This document shows, piece after piece, positions 40,186-58,180 of a stretch of DNA of 64,000 bases (positions are counted from its first letter, which is position 1; the number at the start of each line of letters is the position of its first letter). The notes below the pieces were generated by a model. The model was not told the origin of the DNA. It ran no database searches and worked only from the letters and a program-made list of their open reading frames with translations. Source of the stretch: Bacilli bacterium (lineage in GTDB: Bacteria; Bacillota_I; Bacilli_A; RF39; UBA660); the NCBI GenBank assembly GCA_017404555.1, contig JAFRCD010000005.1, positions 1 to 64,000 on the forward strand. Reading direction: 5' to 3'. The translations under genes were made by a program, and so were the position numbers.

Positions 40186-41811
40186 ATGAAAATTAAGAAT
40201 TTACGCGTAAGAGCTGCTTCTATAGGAGTATCTTTAGTACTAGCAGGTGGTTATGGTGGTGCCATGGCTATGCCAGTTTTTGCTGAAGATGTTCAAGAAG
40301 AAGTAGAAGTAGAGAACAATGACGAAATAGTTTTAGCAGAAGCAAATATGGGGGAAGAAATTGCTGTTGAAGAAATAGTACCGGAAGTAAAAGAACAAAT
40401 TAAAGAGGAAGTTGTTGAAGAACAAGTTCCAGAAGTAAAGAAGGAAGAAGAGGCTAAAAAAGAAGAAGTAACTAAAGAAGAAACTACTAAAGAAGACGAT
40501 AAAAGCAAAGAAAAAGAAGAAGTTAAAGAACCTAAGAAAGGTGCTTCTACTCCTGAAGCTTCAGAAGAAAAAAGAGAAGAAAACGAACCTCATAAAGTAT
40601 CAGTAATAACTGTTAAAGTAGATGGTGAAGGAGCTGCTTTAGCAGGAGCTACTCTACAAATAATTGATAGTAATGGTAATGTTGTAGACGAGTGGATATC
40701 TGATGGTAAAGAACATATTTCAATGCTACCTGAAGGAACCTATACTTTACATGAAGCTGGAACTCCAGCTGGTTACACTACTTCTGAAGATAAAACCTTT
40801 ACAGTTAAAGTTGAAGTAAATGATATTAATGCTGGAGTAGTACATGACGATAGTGGTACTGTATGTTGGCATTATGGAGGCGTACCTCTATACTATGTTG
40901 AAAGCGAAGGAGAAAGAGAAGAAGTTTACTGTATCAATCAAGATTGGAAAGAACCACATGATATAGATTACAATGGTATGGTTCTAGATGAAACAAATAT
41001 TAGAACCTTTACTCCAGATAGTGATCCTTCTATGACTGACCAAGAACTATATGATAAAGTACTAGATATAATATATCATCGTAGTAAAGCAGAAGAATTA
41101 TTCCCAAATCTATCTGAAATCGAAATACGATTTATTACTGAGTATGCGTTAAAGACATATACTTCTTCAGAGGTTTTAGCAGCTAATGCAAAAAGAGATG
41201 AACAAGGTCATATAATTCGGGATGAAGATGGCAATATTGTCTATGAATATTATCGTTTCTTAAGATATTATCGTTATGATCCAGATTCTCCACAAGGGTA
41301 TGTAATTGATCCTGAAAATGGTGATGGATTTGGTAAATTAGCTCAACACTGGTGGACAGCACATAATCATACTAAAATACCTGATGAATATGCTCAATTA
41401 TTCTATTATTTAATAGGTACTAGTGATAAACATCCTAAAGATATGCATCTATATATCTATTCAACCAAAAATTTAGCTGCTGATGGAGAATCATATCAAA
41501 ACTTATTAGGAGTTAGATGGTTTGATCCATATGATGAAGACTATAAGATGTATTTATCAGTAATAAATAAAGCTAAACCATATACACCACCAGAAGAACC
41601 AGAAAAGCCTAAAGAGCAAGACAGTCCTAAAAAACAAAAGGAAACAACTACTACACCAACTAAGACTAGTGCTAAAGTAATTGATGCCCCTCAAACAGGT
41701 GATGATAATTCATTTACATGGGCTCTAGCTGGCTTGGGTTCATCTGCAATGGCTTTAACTGCTCTAGCGGAAATGAAAAGAAGAGAAAATAAAAAAGTAA
41801 AAAGAAAATAG
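40186..41811 (+). CDS. TQXA/thioester-like surface adhesin with SpaA-like domain and APQTG anchor
   Basis: 541 residues. A signal peptide (to about residue 32) is followed by a long Glu/Lys/Val-rich stalk (about 33-140) and a SpaA/Cna-B-like domain (about 142-220, LPEGTYTLHEAGTPAGYT). A TQXA-type thioester region follows (about 225-400): VYCINQDWKEP with Cys 249, and ITEYALKTY where the family has TQxA. Here the thioester glutamine reads Glu 319. The C-terminus is a Pro/Lys/Thr linker, then APQTG, a hydrophobic segment and KRRENKKVKRK, a variant sortase signal. It is probably a wall-anchored adhesin, but whether a thioester can form is doubtful. Confidence 0.75.
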   Translation: MKIKNLRVRAASIGVSLVLAGGYGGAMAMPVFAEDVQEEVEVENNDEIVLAEANMGEEIAVEEIVPEVKEQIKEEVVEEQVPEVKKEEEAKKEEVTKEETTKEDDKSKEKEEVKEPKKGASTPEASEEKREENEPHKVSVITVKVDGEGAALAGATLQIIDSNGNVVDEWISDGKEHISMLPEGTYTLHEAGTPAGYTTSEDKTFTVKVEVNDINAGVVHDDSGTVCWHYGGVPLYYVESEGEREEVYCINQDWKEPHDIDYNGMVLDETNIRTFTPDSDPSMTDQELYDKVLDIIYHRSKAEELFPNLSEIEIRFITEYALKTYTSSEVLAANAKRDEQGHIIRDEDGNIVYEYYRFLRYYRYDPDSPQGYVIDPENGDGFGKLAQHWWTAHNHTKIPDEYAQLFYYLIGTSDKHPKDMHLYIYSTKNLAADGESYQNLLGVRWFDPYDEDYKMYLSVINKAKPYTPPEEPEKPKEQDSPKKQKETTTTPTKTSAKVIDAPQTGDDNSFTWALAGLGSSAMALTALAEMKRRENKKVKRK

Positions 41812-42168: not shown

Positions 42169-42197
42169 TTGACCCACTTTTATCATTAGTATATAAT
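42169..42197 (+). promoter_or_regulatory. promoter of the glycosyltransferase-GtrA pair
   Basis: TTGACC (42169-42174), a 17-nt spacer and TATAAT (42192-42197). Confidence 0.8.
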
Positions 42198-42223
42198 TGA
42201 AACATAAGGTGGAGGATTTCGTC

Positions 42224-44707
42224 ATGATGAAGTTTATCGAAATATTAAAAAAGTATAGACTTATAATATTCATATTGGTAATTAGTGTGCTTAGATTTTT
42301 ATTAAGCCATAATTTACCTTCTTTTTATTTTTCAAATTTCAAATATGATGATAGGTTGATGGTAGGTCAAATGCTTTCATTAATGAAAAATCAATATTTG
42401 GGTACCTACAGTCAACTTACTTTAATTAAGGGACCAATATTTCCCATGGTTTTGTACTGTGCCAAGGGTATGGGTATATCATTTAGTTCCTTATTTACTC
42501 TTCTTTATATTTTTTCATCATTATTCTTTGCATTCTCTATGAAAAAAATCATCAATAATAATAAATTCTTTCTAGTGTTATATCTATTATTAATATTTAA
42601 CCCTATTACTTATTCAGCCGAAGTGTTTCAAAGACTTTATGTAAATACTATTTCTATTCCTGAAACCTTAATATTCCTTGGATTTGTAGTAAATATCATT
42701 ACGTCAGATGAAGTAAAAATTAGAGATTGTATTGGATTGGGAGTTATAACAGCCATTATGCTTTTAACTAGAAATGATAATATCTGGATTTTTGTCGTGA
42801 TGAGCATGCTAATTATTTATAAATTAATCAAGAAAAAACAATTAAAGGTTTGCTACATATTCTTATTTCCAATTTTAATTACCACAGGTGCTTTTCTATT
42901 AATTTCTAGTATTAATTACAAGCACTATCAAATATCTACATATAATGAGCTTGAAAACACTCATTTTAGAGATGCATATTCTAAAATATTACAAATAAAA
43001 GACGAGAACAAAAAATTGAAAATATCCATTCCCAAAACCACACTGTATGAGTTAAGTGAAAAATCTAAAATATTTGGACTAACTAAAAAAGAAGTCAAAA
43101 GGCAGTACAAATTATCCAAACGAGATGAAGTAGACAATGGAGATATCATCTGGTTTTTTAGATTTATTACATACGATAAACATCACTTTCTGACTGGCAG
43201 ACAGGCAGATAAATATTATAAAGAGCTAAGCAATGAATTGGATACATTATTTGAAACTGGTGAATTGAAGAAAGAAAAGATATTACCATCTATTTATTTA
43301 AATTCAACCACTAATAAAGCTTTAGTATTATTACCTCGTAGAATACTAAAGGCTATATATTACACATCAACTTATGAGAATGTTAGAACATATAGTATCG
43401 ATGAACTAGAAGCACAAGAAGCAATATATAACAATGAAATTGATGCTTATTCTATGATCTACAGAGATTATCGTTACGCTGAAAATATTATTACAAAAAA
43501 TACTCAATTAGCAGAAATAATGCGCACAATATATAAAATCTTTATAGTCCTTTTCAGCTTTATTGCTTTAATTATCTATTTTAAAAATATTAAGAAGCTA
43601 GATAATTTAGGATTTATTATTAATATTATTTTACTAGTATATCTACTTATTTTAGGAGGAGTAGTTTATACCGATATTACAGCCTTTCATGCAATCAGAT
43701 ACCGTTATTTATGCAATGTATATATCTTGCAAAGTATATTTATCATGCTGAATTTAGGTAGAATATATTTAAATAGAGTAGAAACTGATAATACTAAACT
43801 TGCCTCCATGAGTGATAAAGTAACTAAAAAGATAAATGGTATTAAAGTATCGGTAATTATTCCTGCCTATAATGAAGAAAAAGCTATTGATAGTACTATT
43901 AGAGAAATCAATGAAGTTTTAAAGAAACATAGTATTTACAAAGGCTCTGAAGTGATTGTTGTGAATGATGGATCCAGTGATAAGACTGGTAAAATTGCCG
44001 CTAAGAGTGGTGCCATAGTCATTAATAATTCACATAATATGGGTTATGGTTTTTCGTTAAAAAAAGGCATTAAAAAAGCTAAAAACAATCTTATCGTTAT
44101 AACAGATGCAGACGGTACTTATCCATTTAATTATGTTCCTAAAATGATACAAGAACAAAAACAAGGCTTTGATTTAGTAATAGGTGCGCGATGTGGGAAA
44201 TATTATAGACAATCTACTTTTAAAAACATATTAAGAAAAGCACTAAAGAAATTAGTAGAATTTGTTACCGATAGAAAAATAGAAGATGTCAATTCAGGAC
44301 TTAGAGTGTTTGAAAAATCAACAGTTGTTAAATACCTTCCACTACTGTGTAACACCTTTAGTTTTTCAACTACTGAAACACTTACTTATGCCATGAACAA
44401 TCATAACATTGCTTACGTTGATATCCCATACCAAAAAAGAGTGGGAAAAAGCAAAATAAAGTTAGTTAGAGACTCCATAAAAGTATTGCAGTACATATTA
44501 AAACTAAGTGTTTATTATAGACCTCTGAAGATTTATTATTTATTTACTTTCTTAGGTATTACTATATCCTTAATTGGTCTTATCTGTTCTAACTTTACGA
44601 GAATAAGATTAGGATATGTTCTAGGCATAGGTGGATTATTGGTATTTATTATCCTATTACTACTTGGTTTCTTGGCTTCACATTTAAAACAAAATAAGGA
44701 TAAATAG
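42224..44707 (+). CDS. GT-C-like membrane protein fused to a GT2 glycosyltransferase
   Basis: 827 residues. Roughly residues 1-530 form a polytopic membrane part resembling GT-C/PMT-type transferases, with an early Asp pair (KYDDRLMVGQ). Residues about 540-760 are a cytoplasmic GT2 domain of the dolichyl/undecaprenyl-phosphate sugar synthase type (VSVIIPAYNEEKAIDSTIRE, VVNDGSSDKTG, ITDADGTYP). Two C-terminal helices follow. One chain may both make a lipid-linked sugar and use it. Start ATG 42224 is eight bases after GGAGG. GtrA follows eight bases later. Confidence 0.82.
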   Translation: MMKFIEILKKYRLIIFILVISVLRFLLSHNLPSFYFSNFKYDDRLMVGQMLSLMKNQYLGTYSQLTLIKGPIFPMVLYCAKGMGISFSSLFTLLYIFSSLFFAFSMKKIINNNKFFLVLYLLLIFNPITYSAEVFQRLYVNTISIPETLIFLGFVVNIITSDEVKIRDCIGLGVITAIMLLTRNDNIWIFVVMSMLIIYKLIKKKQLKVCYIFLFPILITTGAFLLISSINYKHYQISTYNELENTHFRDAYSKILQIKDENKKLKISIPKTTLYELSEKSKIFGLTKKEVKRQYKLSKRDEVDNGDIIWFFRFITYDKHHFLTGRQADKYYKELSNELDTLFETGELKKEKILPSIYLNSTTNKALVLLPRRILKAIYYTSTYENVRTYSIDELEAQEAIYNNEIDAYSMIYRDYRYAENIITKNTQLAEIMRTIYKIFIVLFSFIALIIYFKNIKKLDNLGFIINIILLVYLLILGGVVYTDITAFHAIRYRYLCNVYILQSIFIMLNLGRIYLNRVETDNTKLASMSDKVTKKINGIKVSVIIPAYNEEKAIDSTIREINEVLKKHSIYKGSEVIVVNDGSSDKTGKIAAKSGAIVINNSHNMGYGFSLKKGIKKAKNNLIVITDADGTYPFNYVPKMIQEQKQGFDLVIGARCGKYYRQSTFKNILRKALKKLVEFVTDRKIEDVNSGLRVFEKSTVVKYLPLLCNTFSFSTTETLTYAMNNHNIAYVDIPYQKRVGKSKIKLVRDSIKVLQYILKLSVYYRPLKIYYLFTFLGITISLIGLICSNFTRIRLGYVLGIGGLLVFIILLLLGFLASHLKQNKDK

Positions 44708-44714
44708 GTGTAAT

Positions 44715-45128
44715 ATGAAAAATAGAATAAGAAAAATAGTAGAAAACAAAATGTTCTTATATGGCATATTTGGCTTACTTACTAGTATTTTAAATGTGAT
44801 AATGTTTTATTGTTTTGATTTAATTATGCCATACCAAATAGCCAATCTTATTACTCTAGTTATAGTTAAATTAATTGCCTTTTATTGTAATAAAACCTTT
44901 GTCTTTAAAAGTAAATGTGCAAATAAAACGGAATTAATAAAGCAGTTTTTTAGTTTCGTGATAGTTAGAGGGTTAACATTATTAATAGATTATTTTGGTT
45001 TAATTATTATGATCCAATACTTTAATTTAGATCATGTTCTTTCCAAAATCATAATCACCATAGTAGTAGTTATTACTAATTATGTTACGGGAGAAAAGTA
45101 TGTATTTAGTCAAAAGAAAGCACACTAA
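44715..45128 (+). CDS. GtrA-family membrane protein
   Basis: 137 residues with four helices. The family signature is FGLLTSILNVIMFYCF near the start, KLIAFYCNKTFVFKS, and YVTGEKYVF at the end. GtrA proteins are thought to flip undecaprenyl-linked sugars for glycosylation of wall polymers or O-antigens. Pairing with the GT2 fusion directly upstream fits that role. AGGTGTAAT precedes ATG 44715. Confidence 0.88.
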   Translation: MKNRIRKIVENKMFLYGIFGLLTSILNVIMFYCFDLIMPYQIANLITLVIVKLIAFYCNKTFVFKSKCANKTELIKQFFSFVIVRGLTLLIDYFGLIIMIQYFNLDHVLSKIIITIVVVITNYVTGEKYVFSQKKAH

Positions 45129-45141
45129 GTGCTCTTTTTTG
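45116..45141 (+). terminator. terminator after gtrA
   Basis: AAAGCAC and GTGCTCTTT pair around ACTAA with a T-run, overlapping the gtrA stop. Confidence 0.8.
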
Positions 45142-45249: not shown

Positions 45250-45278
45250 TTGACTTTTAGGCATCAATATGTTAATAT
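45250..45278 (+). promoter_or_regulatory. promoter of the 45314-49069 surface cluster
   Basis: TTGACT (45250-45255), a 17-nt spacer and TAATAT (45273-45278), the same pair of boxes as the glyS promoter. Confidence 0.78.
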
Positions 45279-45313
45279 ATAGGGCATCCAAAAAAAGAAG
45301 GGGGTAGTACGTA

Positions 45314-46960
45314 ATGTATACCGAAAATTATGAAAGAAAAGGATTTCCAATTAGAGACTTTTTACTTAAGTTATTACTAATAGTAATTTTTGTTGTGTTA
45401 TTATGCTGGTTATTACCTAAATTCATTGCACCAAAAATAACTAACTATAACAATAGTAAAAACAATAATTTGGCAAATTCTAGTTTTTCAAGCACTGAAT
45501 TATCAGGTTTAAGCAGCCAAATCTTTGCTGATAATTTAGACAAAATGAAAGAGGCTGCAACAAGTTATTTTACTAAGGAACGTCTTCCAAAGGAAATTGG
45601 TGAATCTAAGAAAATAACTTTAAAAGACATGATAGAGGAGAAACTATTAGTACCATTAATTGACAAAAATGGTAAAGAATGTAACAAGACAAAAAGTTAC
45701 GTTAAAATATCTAAGTTAGATGATGAATATCTAATGAAGGTAAATCTAAGTTGTAGTGAGAAGGAAGATTATATCCTAGTTCACATGGGATGCTACAGTT
45801 ATTGTGAATCTGCTATCTGCGATAAGAAGGATTCTGATGACTACGAGATTAGAGGTTCAAAAGAAACTTCAATCGTACCATTCTATGGAACTAAGAGTGG
45901 AAGCACTAAGTATTATTACTATGGTGGTTCTACTACAAGATATGTACCAACTTCTACTAGTAGTAGTAAAGGAGCTGTTTATTACATAACTAATATAAAC
46001 AACTATAATACTACTAATAATCATTCTGGAGGTTCAGGTTCTGTTATTAATAACATTACTAACAATGTAATTAATATTATCGTTAATAACTGTCATCAAC
46101 ATGGAACTTGTCCAAAGCCAGATCCAAAACCAGAAGTAGAATATATCTATGAATATAGTAAAACTACTGGAGCTACATTCACTAAATGGAGTGATTGGAC
46201 TGCCTGGAGTAAGACAAGTTGTGATACTAAAGAAATAAATTGTAGTACAGCTGATCCAAGTTGTTTATACAAATTACAAATGTATAAGAGACGTGAAAAA
46301 GTAGGAAGTTATCAAAAGGCATATACAACTTCACATCAAGAATTAACTCAATTAGCTACATATAATAAGAAGTCTTGTAGTAATTTCAACTATGTAATTA
46401 TTGATAATACTACATATGCAACTACTACAACTACAACAACAACTTATACTAGAATTAATACAATTACTAACACAACTGCATCATCAACTGGTGGTTGGAC
46501 TTATGCTGGTCGTAAGTCATATGCTAACCCACCACGTGATACAGCTGGTGTTCATTACAAATGGGCTGGTGCTGATTATAGCTACTGTGGAGATACTTGT
46601 ACAACTCTACCTAATTGGTATTATGATACCTATAAATATAGTGGTGGTTTAACTAAAGTATCTAGTACAACTACACCTGGTAGAACTACTACATCAACTT
46701 CTACTTCAAGTTCAACTTCTAGTAGCTTACAAGTAAGTTGTGGTGCTTATGTTTATAAAACAGTACCAGTATATGGATATATAACTAAATATGAAAAAGC
46801 TTATAGAACAGAAAACCTATATGGTGATGTATGCTATAAGAGTACAAAAGATAGAAAGAAAATAACTGATGGTAAGACTCAAACTAGATGGAGTGTTTAT
46901 AATGATACATCACTATTAAATGATGGTTGGGTTTATACCGGAAAGAAAAGAAGAAAGTAA
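45314..46960 (+). CDS. large membrane-anchored Thr/Ser/Tyr-rich protein with a TSP1-like WSxW motif
   Basis: 548 residues. One N-terminal helix (about 20-40) precedes an outside region: a small domain (about 65-175) with Cys pairs and SYVKISKLDDEYLMKVNLSC, a low-complexity Tyr/Ser/Asn stretch, and then TKWSDWTAWSKTSCDT (about 289-304), which resembles thrombospondin type-1 repeats. The C-terminal half is Thr/Ser-rich with an eight-Thr tract and further Cys. No known family covers it. The ribosome site is GGGGG, shared with 46976 and 49169. Expected outside the cell, possibly adhesive. Confidence 0.65.
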   Translation: MYTENYERKGFPIRDFLLKLLLIVIFVVLLCWLLPKFIAPKITNYNNSKNNNLANSSFSSTELSGLSSQIFADNLDKMKEAATSYFTKERLPKEIGESKKITLKDMIEEKLLVPLIDKNGKECNKTKSYVKISKLDDEYLMKVNLSCSEKEDYILVHMGCYSYCESAICDKKDSDDYEIRGSKETSIVPFYGTKSGSTKYYYYGGSTTRYVPTSTSSSKGAVYYITNINNYNTTNNHSGGSGSVINNITNNVINIIVNNCHQHGTCPKPDPKPEVEYIYEYSKTTGATFTKWSDWTAWSKTSCDTKEINCSTADPSCLYKLQMYKRREKVGSYQKAYTTSHQELTQLATYNKKSCSNFNYVIIDNTTYATTTTTTTTYTRINTITNTTASSTGGWTYAGRKSYANPPRDTAGVHYKWAGADYSYCGDTCTTLPNWYYDTYKYSGGLTKVSSTTTPGRTTTSTSTSSSTSSSLQVSCGAYVYKTVPVYGYITKYEKAYRTENLYGDVCYKSTKDRKKITDGKTQTRWSVYNDTSLLNDGWVYTGKKRRK

Positions 46961-46975
46961 TTGGGGGTGTAACTG

Positions 46976-49069
46976 ATGAATATAAGAAATATAATTATTC
47001 ATAACGAAAAAGGAGATCTTCATGACCATACTTTAACTAATGGTATGACTATTAAAACTAGAGACTATTTATTCGCTACCGTTATCTATGAAGATGGTAC
47101 TTGCGAAGAAGTTTCATTCAATGAAGGAATTAATAAAGCTGTAAAACTTGCTAAGAAAGAAAATTTAACAGCTGAAGAAATGAAAGACTTTGGTATCGTT
47201 AGATATGTAAAAGAAGAAGACTATATAGAAGCTCTTGATGATGTTATGGATGAAATGGATGATGAATTAGAAATTGATACCGATGAATTAGATTTTGATG
47301 ACGAAGATATCGAAGTTAAAAGAGTATCAAGTGAAAATGATCACAAAACTGCTAAAACTATTGGTAGATTAGCATTAGGTGCTGGTATCTTAGCTTTAAT
47401 TCTTGGAAGTTGTAGTCTTACTAAGGGATTAGTTAAGAACTCTACTGAGCCAACTAAGGCAGAAGAAACAGATGATGAGGACTTTGCTAAAGCCTTTGAA
47501 GATATGACTATTGAAGAATTACTAGATACTACTACTAATGATGTACAAAAAGAAGCTATGAATAGAAGATTCAATGTAATTAACTATTTAAATGGTGAAT
47601 TCGCTGACTATTACTTAGAAAGTGATAAAGATGTTAGATTCGGTTTACATTATCGTGAATTAGAAGCACTAGATTTAGCATATAATAATTACACTACTGA
47701 AGAAGTAATGGAAATGTATAATGGTTCTACATTAAACATCAAGAAATTAAATGATGCTTATAGAACTGGTACTCTTATGATGATGGGTGCTTATACAATG
47801 TCTGATTCTAATATGCCTGTTAAGGGTTATGAATTAATTAGATGTCCAGAAAAAAGAGAAATTGCTAAATCTTGGGAAGATAAGTTCTATGCAATTAAAA
47901 ATGCTAAGGGACAAGATCAAATTAATAAGATTAATGATTTCTATCGTGAATTCAATAGTTTATTCCCAATTGATCAAAAGACTAGAACTGAAGGTCTAGC
48001 TCACTATGATTCAAGAGAGAATATGGACTATGAATTACTTGCTTATCTTACACCAATGGTTTCTGCTATGGAGCAAATGTATCAAAATCTTGAAGTAGAT
48101 GCTACTTTAAGTGATCAAGCAATTAAATTTGTTAATGATTTAGGTGTATGTAATTATCTTGATGATAAGATTGAAAACTATGCAAGATGCGTTAATACCT
48201 GCAATGATTGTCAAAAGAGCATTGATGAGTCATATCCAACAGGATTACACTTTGAAAATGCTATTAATGCATACCTAGAAAGCAAAAACATTAATGTAAT
48301 TGATGATGATCATCGTGATATCAGTAAATATGACAGATACTTAAAAGCAGTTAATGCTTACTGTGAAGCTGGTAAAGATGGTTATACTGAAAATCAAAAA
48401 TATGTTTCTATTTCTAAGACTCTTCAATCTTGGTCTAAATCATCTAGTAAAACAACTTATCGTACTGAAACGAAGAAACGTAAAGTTTCTAGAGAAGAAG
48501 CAGTTAAGAAGTTTGGAGAAGCTAAAGTTAAGGCTAAAGAAGAAGCAGTTAGAAAACAAATAGAAAAAGAAAATGCTGCTGCTAAAGCTAAAGCTTTAAA
48601 AGAAGCTGCTAAGAAGAAGAAAGAACTTCAAGATGCTGAAAACAAGAAGAAAGAACAATTAGAAAAAGAAATTAAGAAAGAAAATGAACAAAATAAACAA
48701 GATGTTATCGATAATCTACCTGACTATGTAGATAAGGATAGTGTTTCACCAGATCCTGGACATAGTAGTGATCTACCAGATCCACAAGAATCAGGTAAGA
48801 GATTAGATAATAATGAACCAGAATACAAAGGTAAGGATAGGGTAACACCAGATCATATTATGCCAGTTGAACCAAATCAAGTAAATAACAACACAAGTAC
48901 AAATACTAACACTAATACAAATACAACTCCTGCTAATAATTCAACTACATATGATGATCTACCAGATCCTAATGTAACTGGTAAAGACTTTGATGCTAAG
49001 GCAGAAGCTATGGTTAATGCAATGGCTAATGCTAAGAGTGAAGAAAGTCCTAAGACTTTAACAAAATAA
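46976..49069 (+). CDS. large single-pass membrane protein, coiled-coil, unknown function
   Basis: 697 residues. An approximately 120-residue cytoplasmic N-terminus is very acidic towards its end (DDELEIDTDELDFDDEDIE). One helix (about 130-148, LALGAGILALILG) follows. Then comes a large outside part: an alpha-helical domain (about 190-500), a Lys/Glu/Ala coiled coil (about 510-575), and a Pro/Asn/Thr-rich tail with two LPDP motifs and an (NT)n tract. No family recognised. It lies 16 bases after the 45314 gene with a GGGGGTG ribosome site, so the pair is one operon and the products may act together. Confidence 0.65.
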   Translation: MNIRNIIIHNEKGDLHDHTLTNGMTIKTRDYLFATVIYEDGTCEEVSFNEGINKAVKLAKKENLTAEEMKDFGIVRYVKEEDYIEALDDVMDEMDDELEIDTDELDFDDEDIEVKRVSSENDHKTAKTIGRLALGAGILALILGSCSLTKGLVKNSTEPTKAEETDDEDFAKAFEDMTIEELLDTTTNDVQKEAMNRRFNVINYLNGEFADYYLESDKDVRFGLHYRELEALDLAYNNYTTEEVMEMYNGSTLNIKKLNDAYRTGTLMMMGAYTMSDSNMPVKGYELIRCPEKREIAKSWEDKFYAIKNAKGQDQINKINDFYREFNSLFPIDQKTRTEGLAHYDSRENMDYELLAYLTPMVSAMEQMYQNLEVDATLSDQAIKFVNDLGVCNYLDDKIENYARCVNTCNDCQKSIDESYPTGLHFENAINAYLESKNINVIDDDHRDISKYDRYLKAVNAYCEAGKDGYTENQKYVSISKTLQSWSKSSSKTTYRTETKKRKVSREEAVKKFGEAKVKAKEEAVRKQIEKENAAAKAKALKEAAKKKKELQDAENKKKEQLEKEIKKENEQNKQDVIDNLPDYVDKDSVSPDPGHSSDLPDPQESGKRLDNNEPEYKGKDRVTPDHIMPVEPNQVNNNTSTNTNTNTNTTPANNSTTYDDLPDPNVTGKDFDAKAEAMVNAMANAKSEESPKTLTK

Positions 49070-49088
49070 GGATGGAAACATCCTTTTT
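49069..49088 (+). terminator. terminator of the surface cluster
   Basis: AGGATG and CATCCT flank GAAA, followed by TTTTTT, directly after the stop codon. Confidence 0.85.
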
Positions 49089-49091
49089 TGA

Positions 49092-49120
49092 TTGACAAAT
49101 TAACTAATTTATGGTATAAT
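49092..49120 (+). promoter_or_regulatory. consensus promoter of the 49169 gene
   Basis: TTGACA (49092-49097), exactly 17 nt, then TATAAT (49115-49120) with an extended -10 TGG. It is one of the strongest promoters in the window, for a gene of unknown function. Confidence 0.9.
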
Positions 49121-49168
49121 ATGTACACATATTGAGGGTAGGACTAAAGAAGAACAGGGGGTTTAATT

Positions 49169-49588
49169 ATGAAGAAGAATTATATCGTTGAGTATTTAGA
49201 TGAAAATGAATTCCGTAAAAAAGAAAGATCAGTCCGTAAATATAATATGCTTGCTTATAAAAAACTTACATTTGAATACTATCAAGAAATACGTAATGGT
49301 AATTTCTTAGGTAAAGAAGTAAATAAGAATCTTAAGAACAATACTGCTGATTACGAATTAAAATTACCAACTGATGATTTATTTGCTAAAGTACATGGTG
49401 ACATTGTTTTACATTATACTGTTTACTTTGATAAGAAAATTATTCTTTTAACTAATATTACACCAGATGGTATTTTGGATGAAGGTCATAGAGCTGAACT
49501 TACTACTTATAAGGGAGTTATGGTATCTAAAGCTCATCCTGAAAAAGACATGTTTAAGATTAACCTAATGAATATGTTAAATAAATAG
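49169..49588 (+). CDS. small cytoplasmic protein of unknown function, strongly promoted
   Basis: 139 residues, no membrane helix. A basic N-terminus (FRKKERSVRKYN) is followed by a probably beta-rich domain (KVHGDIVLHYTVYFDKKIIL). No family recognised. A perfect consensus promoter and a GGGGGT ribosome site imply high expression. The gene has its own terminator. Confidence 0.65.
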   Translation: MKKNYIVEYLDENEFRKKERSVRKYNMLAYKKLTFEYYQEIRNGNFLGKEVNKNLKNNTADYELKLPTDDLFAKVHGDIVLHYTVYFDKKIILLTNITPDGILDEGHRAELTTYKGVMVSKAHPEKDMFKINLMNMLNK

Positions 49589-49612: not shown

Positions 49613-49640
49613 CAAAAAAAGCGCTTATGCGCTTATTTTT
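49613..49640 (-). terminator. terminator of the minus-strand gene 49645-50283
   Basis: AAGCGC and GCGCTT pair around TTAT. On the minus strand the hairpin is followed by a run of seven T; on the plus strand the tail is weaker (ATTTTTA). Confidence 0.75.
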
Positions 49641-49644
49641 AATA

Positions 49645-50283
49645 CTAGTTATAATATTTATAGAATTCATCAGTATAAGGTGTCCATCTACGATCATCAT
49701 CAGCATAATTATATTTGTTTATAAATAGAATATGGGATTCATTTTTATAAAATCTAGCTGCCCATGTGTCAATTTCATCATCATATTCTCTACCAAATTC
49801 GCGAGAAAAAATATATCCGATTCTGTTTCTAAATTCATCTAGTAAATTATACTTACTATTTCCAGTAAGCATATTTATTTCTTCTAAATGGTGATTATAA
49901 ATTCCCTCTCCATAATTAATTATGAAATCAGCTTCATCATAAATACTTATTAGTTCACTAGTAGTAAAAGCATTTTTAGACATGCTACCGTCAACATATA
50001 AGGCATATGAGTTTATATCATCTTTAATTAGTTTTTCCCCTTCAGTAAGATCAATCCAGTATTTAGTTTGATAAAAGTATTTTTCATACTCCTTCTTAGT
50101 AGCTTCTAAAATTGCTTCTTCATACTCAATCAGTTCCTTAATGAAATTATCATCAAACCCACAAAAGCCAAGTCTTTTATATATTTCTTTTTCAAACAAA
50201 TCACTGGTTTTTTGGTTTTTAGCAATAACTAATTCTGTAAATAACAATTTATCTATATCAATAGTTTTATATTTCAACTGCAT
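49645..50283 (-). CDS. uncharacterised cytoplasmic protein on the opposite strand
   Basis: 212 residues, acidic, Tyr-rich, without membrane segments. No family recognised. The minus-strand start ATG (50281-50283) follows AGGTGATT. It has its own promoter (50307-50334) and terminator, and it stands against the direction of nearly all its neighbours. This monocistronic placement is typical of recently gained genes, but I see no toxin, nuclease or phage motif in it. Confidence 0.6.
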   Translation of the reverse strand: MQLKYKTIDIDKLLFTELVIAKNQKTSDLFEKEIYKRLGFCGFDDNFIKELIEYEEAILEATKKEYEKYFYQTKYWIDLTEGEKLIKDDINSYALYVDGSMSKNAFTTSELISIYDEADFIINYGEGIYNHHLEEINMLTGNSKYNLLDEFRNRIGYIFSREFGREYDDEIDTWAARFYKNESHILFINKYNYADDDRRWTPYTDEFYKYYN

Positions 50284-50334: not shown

Positions 50335-50409
50335 CTCAGCCAATATTTAAAGATATTGACTTTTATATTGATGAGTATTAGTATAACTTAATAAGAAAGG
50401 AGTACGGTG

Positions 50410-50598
50410 ATGTCAAACAAAAGTAGGGATGAGAGTGGATATAGTTGGCAAAAGCATAATCCTGATAGTGGTACAGCCCAACAAAACTCAAAAACTTGGG
50501 AAGGTGAACATACATGGTATGATCCTAACACACAGAAAATGGGATGGCACGGAGCCAATGCCTCAGACAAAATAAAAAAACTAGGCGGTAAAAATTAA
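50410..50598 (+). CDS. small hydrophilic protein (62 aa)
   Basis: ATG 50410 follows AAGGAG (50398-50403) and GGTG. The product is polar and rich in Asn, Lys, Trp and Gly (SGYSWQKHNPDS, TWYDPNTQKMGWHGAN), with four Trp and no Cys, helix or signal. No family recognised. TTGACT at 50356-50361 gives a -35 box, and a two-way terminator follows. A small structural or phage-derived protein is conceivable. Confidence 0.5.
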   Translation: MSNKSRDESGYSWQKHNPDSGTAQQNSKTWEGEHTWYDPNTQKMGWHGANASDKIKKLGGKN

Positions 50599-58156: not shown

Positions 58157-58180
58157 TATAATAAGATTGAGGTGAAAATT

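What the first reader, a model, noticed from the sequence alone, without database searches (positions are those of the whole stretch)
45314..49588. Surface cluster of unknown proteins with a TSP1-like WSxW motif and shared GGGGG ribosome sites
Two very large single-pass proteins (548 and 697 aa) are encoded as a pair, followed by a 139-aa protein behind a perfect consensus promoter. All three start after GGGGG tracts instead of AGGAGG. The first holds WSDWTAWSKTSC, like thrombospondin type-1 repeats used in adhesion, and long Thr/Ser runs. The second combines an acidic inside tail, an outside helical domain, a coiled coil and LPDP motifs. I recognise no family for any of them. They may form an envelope complex, and of all regions in the window this best fits an undescribed system.
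Basis: partly seen in the sequence, partly recalled or inferred. Interest (0 to 1): 0.6.

Follow-up and report, generated by a model that had tools for sequence, protein, structure and literature searches.

The report
Two-gene pilin-derived surface operon

Summary
P1 (548 aa) and P2 (697 aa) form one transcription unit. P3 (139 aa) has its own perfect promoter. All three carry GGGGG ribosome sites. None matches Pfam, or solved structures by sequence.

P1-P2 is a conserved pair restricted to one family of reduced-genome gut Bacilli. P1 is in 172/193 family genomes and 0/258 other Bacilli. A large same-strand gene directly follows P1 at 68/79 loci; at least 44 of these 68 are detectable P2 homologues.

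P1 residues ~69-150 are homologous to the head of the clade's type IV pilins (profile-profile E 4e-14, controls negative), but P1 lacks a canonical prepilin signal and a continuous spine helix. It reads best as a "retired" modular pilin: membrane-anchored, with a Cys-rich beta module grafted on. TSP1 membership is not supported. P2 is bitopic, with a confidently predicted helical ectodomain of unknown fold.

P3 does not belong: it also sits beside addAB or a SpoVS-like gene and models like RelE-superfamily toxins.

GGGGG sites are strongly non-random (P1 58%, P3 46%, P2 25%, other genes 2%); P3 mRNAs also share a leader hairpin. Function (adhesion or envelope complex) is inferred.

The parts
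45119..45133 (+). terminator-like hairpin closing the upstream GtrA gene
45250..45278 (+). promoter of the P1-P2 unit (TTGACT-17-TAATAT, extended TG); the same position is promoter-like in most orthologues
45300..45304 (+). GGGGG Shine-Dalgarno of P1
45314..46960 (+). P1: 548 aa; residues 1-13 inside, TM ~16-36, pilin-head domain ~64-161, disordered linker 162-272, Cys/Trp beta module 273-548 with WxxW at 292
46963..46967 (+). GGGGG Shine-Dalgarno of P2
46976..49069 (+). P2: 697 aa; cytosolic alpha/beta domain ~4-98, acidic linker 77-117, TM ~128-146, helical ectodomain 168-464, K/E-rich coiled-coil-like stretch ~500-580, low-complexity tail with LPDP at 600 and 662
49068..49085 (+). terminator-like hairpin ending the P1-P2 unit
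49092..49120 (+). perfect sigma-70-type promoter of P3 (12/12, extended TG); not part of the P1-P2 system
49121..49168 (+). P3 leader; relatives carry a hairpin with GGGG in the loop followed by AGGGGGTTGAATAT-ATG; the window copy keeps the 5' motif and the SD but pairs poorly
49169..49588 (+). P3: 139-aa soluble RelE-like-fold protein, separate transcription unit, not part of the P1-P2 system

Best explanation
P1-P2 is a two-gene envelope system of one family of reduced-genome gut Bacilli. P1 derives from a type IV pilin that has left the pilus: its membrane helix is kept as an uncleaved signal anchor, the pilin head sits next to the membrane on a short flexible linker, and a long flexible linker carries a Cys- and Trp-rich beta module (swapped or extended with other repeats in relatives) outward. 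P2, made from the same mRNA, is a bitopic partner with a small cytosolic alpha/beta domain, one TM and a fast-evolving helical ectodomain. The most likely working is that the two assemble side by side in the membrane, P2 holding or positioning P1 and linking it to the cytosol, while P1's outer module binds a surface ligand (host, mucin or neighbouring cell). Shown: homology of the P1 head to pilins, adjacency, clade restriction. Predicted: one transcription unit, domain layout. Inferred: topology, lack of cleavage, physical complex, adhesion. P3 is a separate soluble RelE-fold protein with its own promoter and an RNA leader.
For: P1 head versus the clade's N_methyl pilin heads: hhalign probability 98.2, E 3.9e-14 over 82 columns; controls P3 and P2 below 0.5. 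A true pilin (L028, N_methyl E 1.7e-8) was hit directly by P1. P1 is in 172/193 family genomes, and in 35/38 family versus 0/258 other-family Bacilli. The P2 slot is filled at 68/79 distinct P1 loci, with gaps of at most 61 bp. 44/68 slot proteins recruit to the P2 ectodomain profile, while only 4 of 1556 background ORFs do; some further slot proteins align to the same region above controls. Model: P1 head, beta module and P2 ectodomain at pLDDT about 90-95. P1 outer modules vary: Flg_new in L022 and L025, Ig-like-looking repeats in L003, YYDKNG repeats in L058. Conserved Cys residues. Promoter and terminator hairpins bracket P1-P2. Modular pilins with grafted adhesive domains are an established kind (PMC10191384).
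Against: No direct evidence of a P1-P2 contact: the fused model has pTM 0.44 and is not a complex prediction. Seven loci have P1 followed directly by P3 with no P2 (L127, L216, L217, L245, L261-L263), so P1 can do without P2. The ligand is unknown. Near-universality in the family could point to a housekeeping envelope role rather than adhesion.
Confidence: 0.5

Rival explanations
1. P1 is still a functional type IV minor pilin or tip adhesin (a modular pilin): the degenerate N-terminus is processed and P1 caps pili made from the genome's N_methyl pilins, with P2 as an assembly or anchoring factor.
For: F at +1 in 64/66, Asp at +5 in 43/66 and Gly at -1 in 33/66 P1 proteins; six matches to a pilin query in the same genome, among them the N_methyl pilin at 58172; modular tip pilins are known (PMC10191384).
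Against: No N_methyl match in the window P1, nor among the families shown for the 29 members; no Ala and often N/S/R/K/D/E at -1, Pro at +2 in 39/66, Lys/Arg at +4 in 59/66; a variable linker of about 25 aa separates TM and head helix.
Confidence: 0.2
2. P1-P2 is an envelope housekeeping or signalling unit (wall or division scaffold, transmembrane sensor) rather than an adhesin; the P2 cytosolic domain relays or organises.
For: Near-universal in the family despite genome reduction; P2 has a dedicated cytosolic domain, and a 218-aa paralogue of that domain with its own TM lies behind tuf.
Against: Fast sequence turnover of P2 and swapping of P1 outer modules fit external, ligand-facing roles better.
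Confidence: 0.2
3. All three genes, P3 included, form one envelope complex.
For: P3 lies within two genes downstream at 51/73 P1 loci and shares the GGGGG sites.
Against: P3 has no TM and is RelE-like, has its own promoter and terminator, and is found next to addAB or SpoVS-like genes elsewhere.
Confidence: 0.05
4. The P1 C-terminal half is a true thrombospondin type 1 repeat array, perhaps C-mannosylated at WxxW by a GT-C enzyme.
For: WxxW in 86/91 P1 proteins; conserved Cys; polyprenol-sugar-type enzymes nearby (GT2 and GtrA in the window; a PMT-family gene upstream in 19/57 loci).
Against: No TSP1 family among Pfam hits shown and no solved-structure match; no PMT match in the own genome, an empty result without positive control; DPY19 was not searched.
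Confidence: 0.05

Closest known systems
Modular type IV pilins (for example S. sanguinis PilB and PilC, as described in PMC10191384)
   Same: a pilin head carrying grafted, exchangeable outer domains
   Different: P1 has no canonical class III signal, a linker in place of a continuous spine helix, and a regular neighbour gene P2; no sign of filament assembly
N_methyl pilins of the same clade (window 58172; L028; L166)
   Same: homologous head domain (E 4e-14 against a profile of such pilins)
   Different: those carry KGFTLVELL-type signals; P1 has FPIRDF or FSIKDV instead
Thrombospondin type 1 repeats (PF00090)
   Same: WxxW spacing, Cys-rich beta-strand region
   Different: no profile or structure match; predicted strands of about 36 residues
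RelE/YoeB/YafQ/HigB toxin fold (for P3)
   Same: the top 13 Foldseek PDB hits are RelE-superfamily toxin entries or a related hypothetical protein (HP0892), probability up to 0.97
   Different: extra N-terminal helices; present in 35/37 close family genomes, usually one match per genome; no conserved antitoxin neighbour; no sequence-family match

Membership tests
Type IV pilin | pilin globular head | tested here: met
   hhalign 98.2%, E 3.9e-14, negative controls; helix plus antiparallel beta in the model
Type IV pilin | class III signal (Gly/Ala at -1, Glu at +5, N_methyl profile) | tested here: not met
   no N_methyl hit in the window P1; -1 Gly 33/66, Ala 0; +5 Glu 0/66, Asp 43/66
Type IV pilin | continuous spine helix joining TM and head | tested here: not met
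   variable linker of about 25 aa (P1 37-63) before the head helix; the TM itself was not modelled
Type IV pilin | cleavage by prepilin peptidase and polymerisation | not testable with these tools
   needs N-terminal sequencing or microscopy
Thrombospondin type 1 repeat | match to TSP1 profile or structure | tested here: not met
   no Pfam match for the window P1, no TSP1 among families shown for 29 members, no PDB sequence relative
Thrombospondin type 1 repeat | W/R ladder in a three-stranded fold | tested here: inconclusive
   long beta strands predicted but coordinates could not be inspected; the Foldseek search of the fused model gave nothing
RelE-superfamily toxin (P3) | RelE fold | tested here: met
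   pLDDT 88.5 model; best PDB hits probability 0.93-0.97, though E-values only 0.07-0.3
RelE-superfamily toxin (P3) | adjacent antitoxin | tested here: not met
   neighbours differ between loci
RelE-superfamily toxin (P3) | ribosome-dependent mRNA cleavage | not testable with these tools
   needs assay
Sortase-anchored surface protein (P2 LPDP motif) | LPxTG plus C-terminal TM and basic tail | tested here: not met
   the last LPDP (662) is followed by about 30 residues without a TM

The most novel reading that the evidence does not exclude
A family of gut-associated reduced-genome Bacilli turned a pilus adhesin into a fixed transmembrane device: a pilin that lost processing, tied to a fast-evolving bitopic partner with a cytosolic domain, giving a near-universal attachment and sensing complex. 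Its genes, together with an autonomous RelE-fold protein, are translated from a clade-specific poly-G Shine-Dalgarno class, and the RelE-fold gene is controlled by a hairpin leader whose loop mimics that site.
Probability: 0.25. Interest if true: 0.75.

Novelty: new variant of a known kind. Interest (0 to 1): 0.5.

Why it matters
These uncultured bacteria have very small genomes, yet nearly all sampled genomes of the family keep P1 and most sampled loci keep the pair. A study of chicken caecum ties genome-reduced RF39 bacteria (UBA660) to host growth and notes that research on the order is at an early stage (PMC13155120); that the window's family is UBA660 was not verified. A universal surface complex built from an ex-pilin would give a first handle on how such cells attach or build their envelope, a marker for the family, and a case of a pilin leaving the pilus. 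The shared poly-G ribosome sites and the leader of the RelE-fold gene would make a clade-specific mode of translation control directly testable.

Tried and rejected
TSP1 membership (Pfam, PDB by sequence, Foldseek of the fused model): nothing. P2 ectodomain against the PDB by fold: no hit with meaningful probability, but the query was a 975-aa read-through of P1 plus P2, which weakens that negative; in that alignment the N-termini of most P2-only rows were misplaced onto P1. Defence or phage origin: PADLOC and PHROGs hits only weak ones, no phage homologue of P1 and no plasmid homologue of P2. LPDP as a general motif: only 25/68 P2-slot proteins. Sortase anchoring of P2: no C-terminal TM. Known RNA family for the P3 leader: none in Rfam. 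P3 viral fold relatives: none. P3 as RelE by Pfam: no match. PMT glycosylation of P1: the gene is upstream in only 19/57 loci and gave no match in the own genome. A C2-toxin component hit of the pilin-head profile (E 0.0015) was taken as chance: 66 residues, not seen with the P1-head profile.
Full report
WHAT IS THERE. The window lies in a 0.94 Mb low-GC genome. Terminator-like hairpins at 45119-45133, 49068-49085 and 49619-49634, with promoter-like sites at 45250-45278 and 49092-49120, divide the stretch into two units: P1-P2 and, separately, P3. The window's own pair is preceded by a GT2-domain membrane protein and a GtrA protein; in relatives the usual order is PfkB kinase - Smr - P1 - P2 - P3.

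ORGANISMS. A scan of named genome contigs with P3 gave 80 loci, nearly all labelled as metagenome-assembled; titles say Bacilli, Bacillales, Erysipelotrichaceae, Tenericutes or Firmicutes for the most part, and named ones include Candidatus Faecimonas and Onthousia. I believe this is the GTDB order RF39, but that placement is from memory. The genome has sporulation genes (SpoIIGA, a sigma factor, SirA).

CO-CONSERVATION. P1 is found in 172 of 193 family genomes and, in a sample of the class, in 35 of 38 family members and none of 258 others. P2 by sequence alone seems rare (29/193), but that is mostly a limit of sequence search. At 68 of 79 distinct P1 loci the next gene is a large same-strand ORF (at least 380 aa, gap under 120 bp), typically with a hydrophobic segment. 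Iterated profiles recruit 44 of 68 of these as P2-ectodomain homologues; among 1556 other ORFs the profile hit only four, at loci where the P1-P2 pair is cut, split or disturbed (L076, L117, L122, L252). Of the remaining 24, four (L211, L214, L240, L246) align to the P2 profile at 94-100% probability and several more weakly in the same region, above unrelated window proteins (probability at most 2.9); others show no detectable similarity. At least one slot gene (L226) looks unrelated. Seven loci have P1 directly followed by P3, so P2 is not absolutely required.

P1 IS PILIN-DERIVED. A weak hit from P1 landed on a 256-aa protein with a canonical pilin start (L028; N_methyl E 1.7e-8). A profile of 29 P1 heads against a profile of 14 heads from the clade's pilin-like proteins gives 98.2% probability, E 3.9e-14 over 82 columns, while P3 and P2 profiles give below 0.5%. 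The model shows a helix followed by antiparallel strands at pLDDT about 92. Yet P1 is not a canonical pilin: no N_methyl match, Gly at -1 in only half and never Ala, no Glu at +5 (Asp in 43/66), a charged residue at +4 in most, Pro at +2 in 39/66, and a variable linker between TM and head. The conserved Phe +1 and Asp +5 look like remains of a prepilin start. Relatives carry other outer parts on the same anchor: Listeria-Bacteroides repeats (L022, L025), Ig-like-looking repeats (L003) and YYDKNG repeats (L058, L102). This is the cut-and-paste logic of modular pilins (PMC10191384), here on what looks like a fixed anchor.

THE OUTER MODULE. Residues 273-548 are predicted with high confidence as very long beta strands, with invariant W292, W295, C355, C425, C429, C476 and W526. 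No Pfam or solved-structure relative was found. TSP1-like is a description of spacing, not a membership.

P2. One weak TM near 128, an acidic segment before it, and a helical ectodomain 168-464 at pLDDT about 95. Its N-terminal alpha/beta domain has one paralogue in the genome, a 218-aa single-TM protein behind tuf. No family or fold match; the fold search used a 975-residue read-through of P1 and P2, so the negative is weak. That read-through was only a device to model both in one job; the chain does not exist in the cell, and P2-only rows of the alignment were partly misplaced.

P3. Found in 35/37 close family genomes and, in a class sample, in 28/31 family and 0/216 other genomes. The model (pLDDT 88.5) has RelE, YoeB, YafQ and HigB structures as its best matches, probability up to 0.97 but E-values only 0.07 to 0.3. 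There is no constant antitoxin neighbour. Other contexts: behind addB-addA, or behind a SpoVS-like gene and before pilin genes. It should be taken out of the proposed complex.

GGGGG SITES AND THE P3 LEADER. GGGGG precedes 58% of P1, 46% of P3 and 25% of P2 genes against 2.1% of 921 other genes. With start codons refined, P3 has it both near P1/P2 (35/56) and elsewhere (30/44). P3 mRNAs share the leader ACA..UUGAAGGUA.AGGGG...AGGGGGUUGAAUAU-AUG. Arms flanking the first G run pair better within a locus than when 3' arms are swapped between loci (mean score 11.7 versus 8.8 with SD 0.33; 0 of 2000 swaps reach it). Relatedness inflates this test, and 36 of 60 loci have fewer than 6 pairs, the window's among them (2). 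No Rfam family matches. P1 leaders are short, with a strong promoter and GGGGG but no obvious hairpin. The meaning is open: G-tract sites can pair with CCUCC through one G-U (own knowledge), and the hairpin could mask or mimic the site.

MOST LIKELY WORKING. A membrane-anchored pair, probably co-translated, P1 reaching out and P2 spanning to the cytosol. Steps shown: gene structure, homology of the head, adjacency, restriction to the family. Steps inferred: no cleavage, physical contact, ligand binding. I rate the envelope-complex reading at 0.5, with adhesion as the favoured but unproven role.

Noticed in passing
49121-49168; L241, L088, L114, L084, L129 upstream of P3: Conserved leader of P3 mRNAs with a hairpin holding GGGG in its loop and a second G run as ribosome site; no Rfam match; arm-swap test favours real pairing.
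   Followed up: partly
window starts 45314, 46976, 49169 and orthologues: GGGGG ribosome sites are far commoner before P1 and P3 than before other genes of the clade.
   Followed up: partly
G000:C3:38091-38723 (L034 1498-2154 -): 218-aa single-TM paralogue of the P2 N-terminal domain, between tuf and a gene whose product looks FemX-like (not tested).
   Followed up: no
G000:C4:97065-97559 (L140), L139, L144, L145: Large pilin-like proteins (600 to over 1300 aa open frames) in the family, several pilin matches per genome.
   Followed up: partly
40186-41811: Secreted-looking protein with a SpaA prealbumin-like domain and a C-terminal PQTG-like sorting signal.
   Followed up: no
42197-44707: Membrane protein with a GT2 glycosyltransferase domain at its C-terminus, directly followed by GtrA; inserted between Smr and P1, which are usually adjacent in relatives.
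   Followed up: no
49645-50283 (-): 212-aa protein without Pfam match.
   Followed up: no
50407-50598: 63-aa Trp-rich small ORF before two tRNA genes on the other strand; no family, may not be a gene.
   Followed up: no
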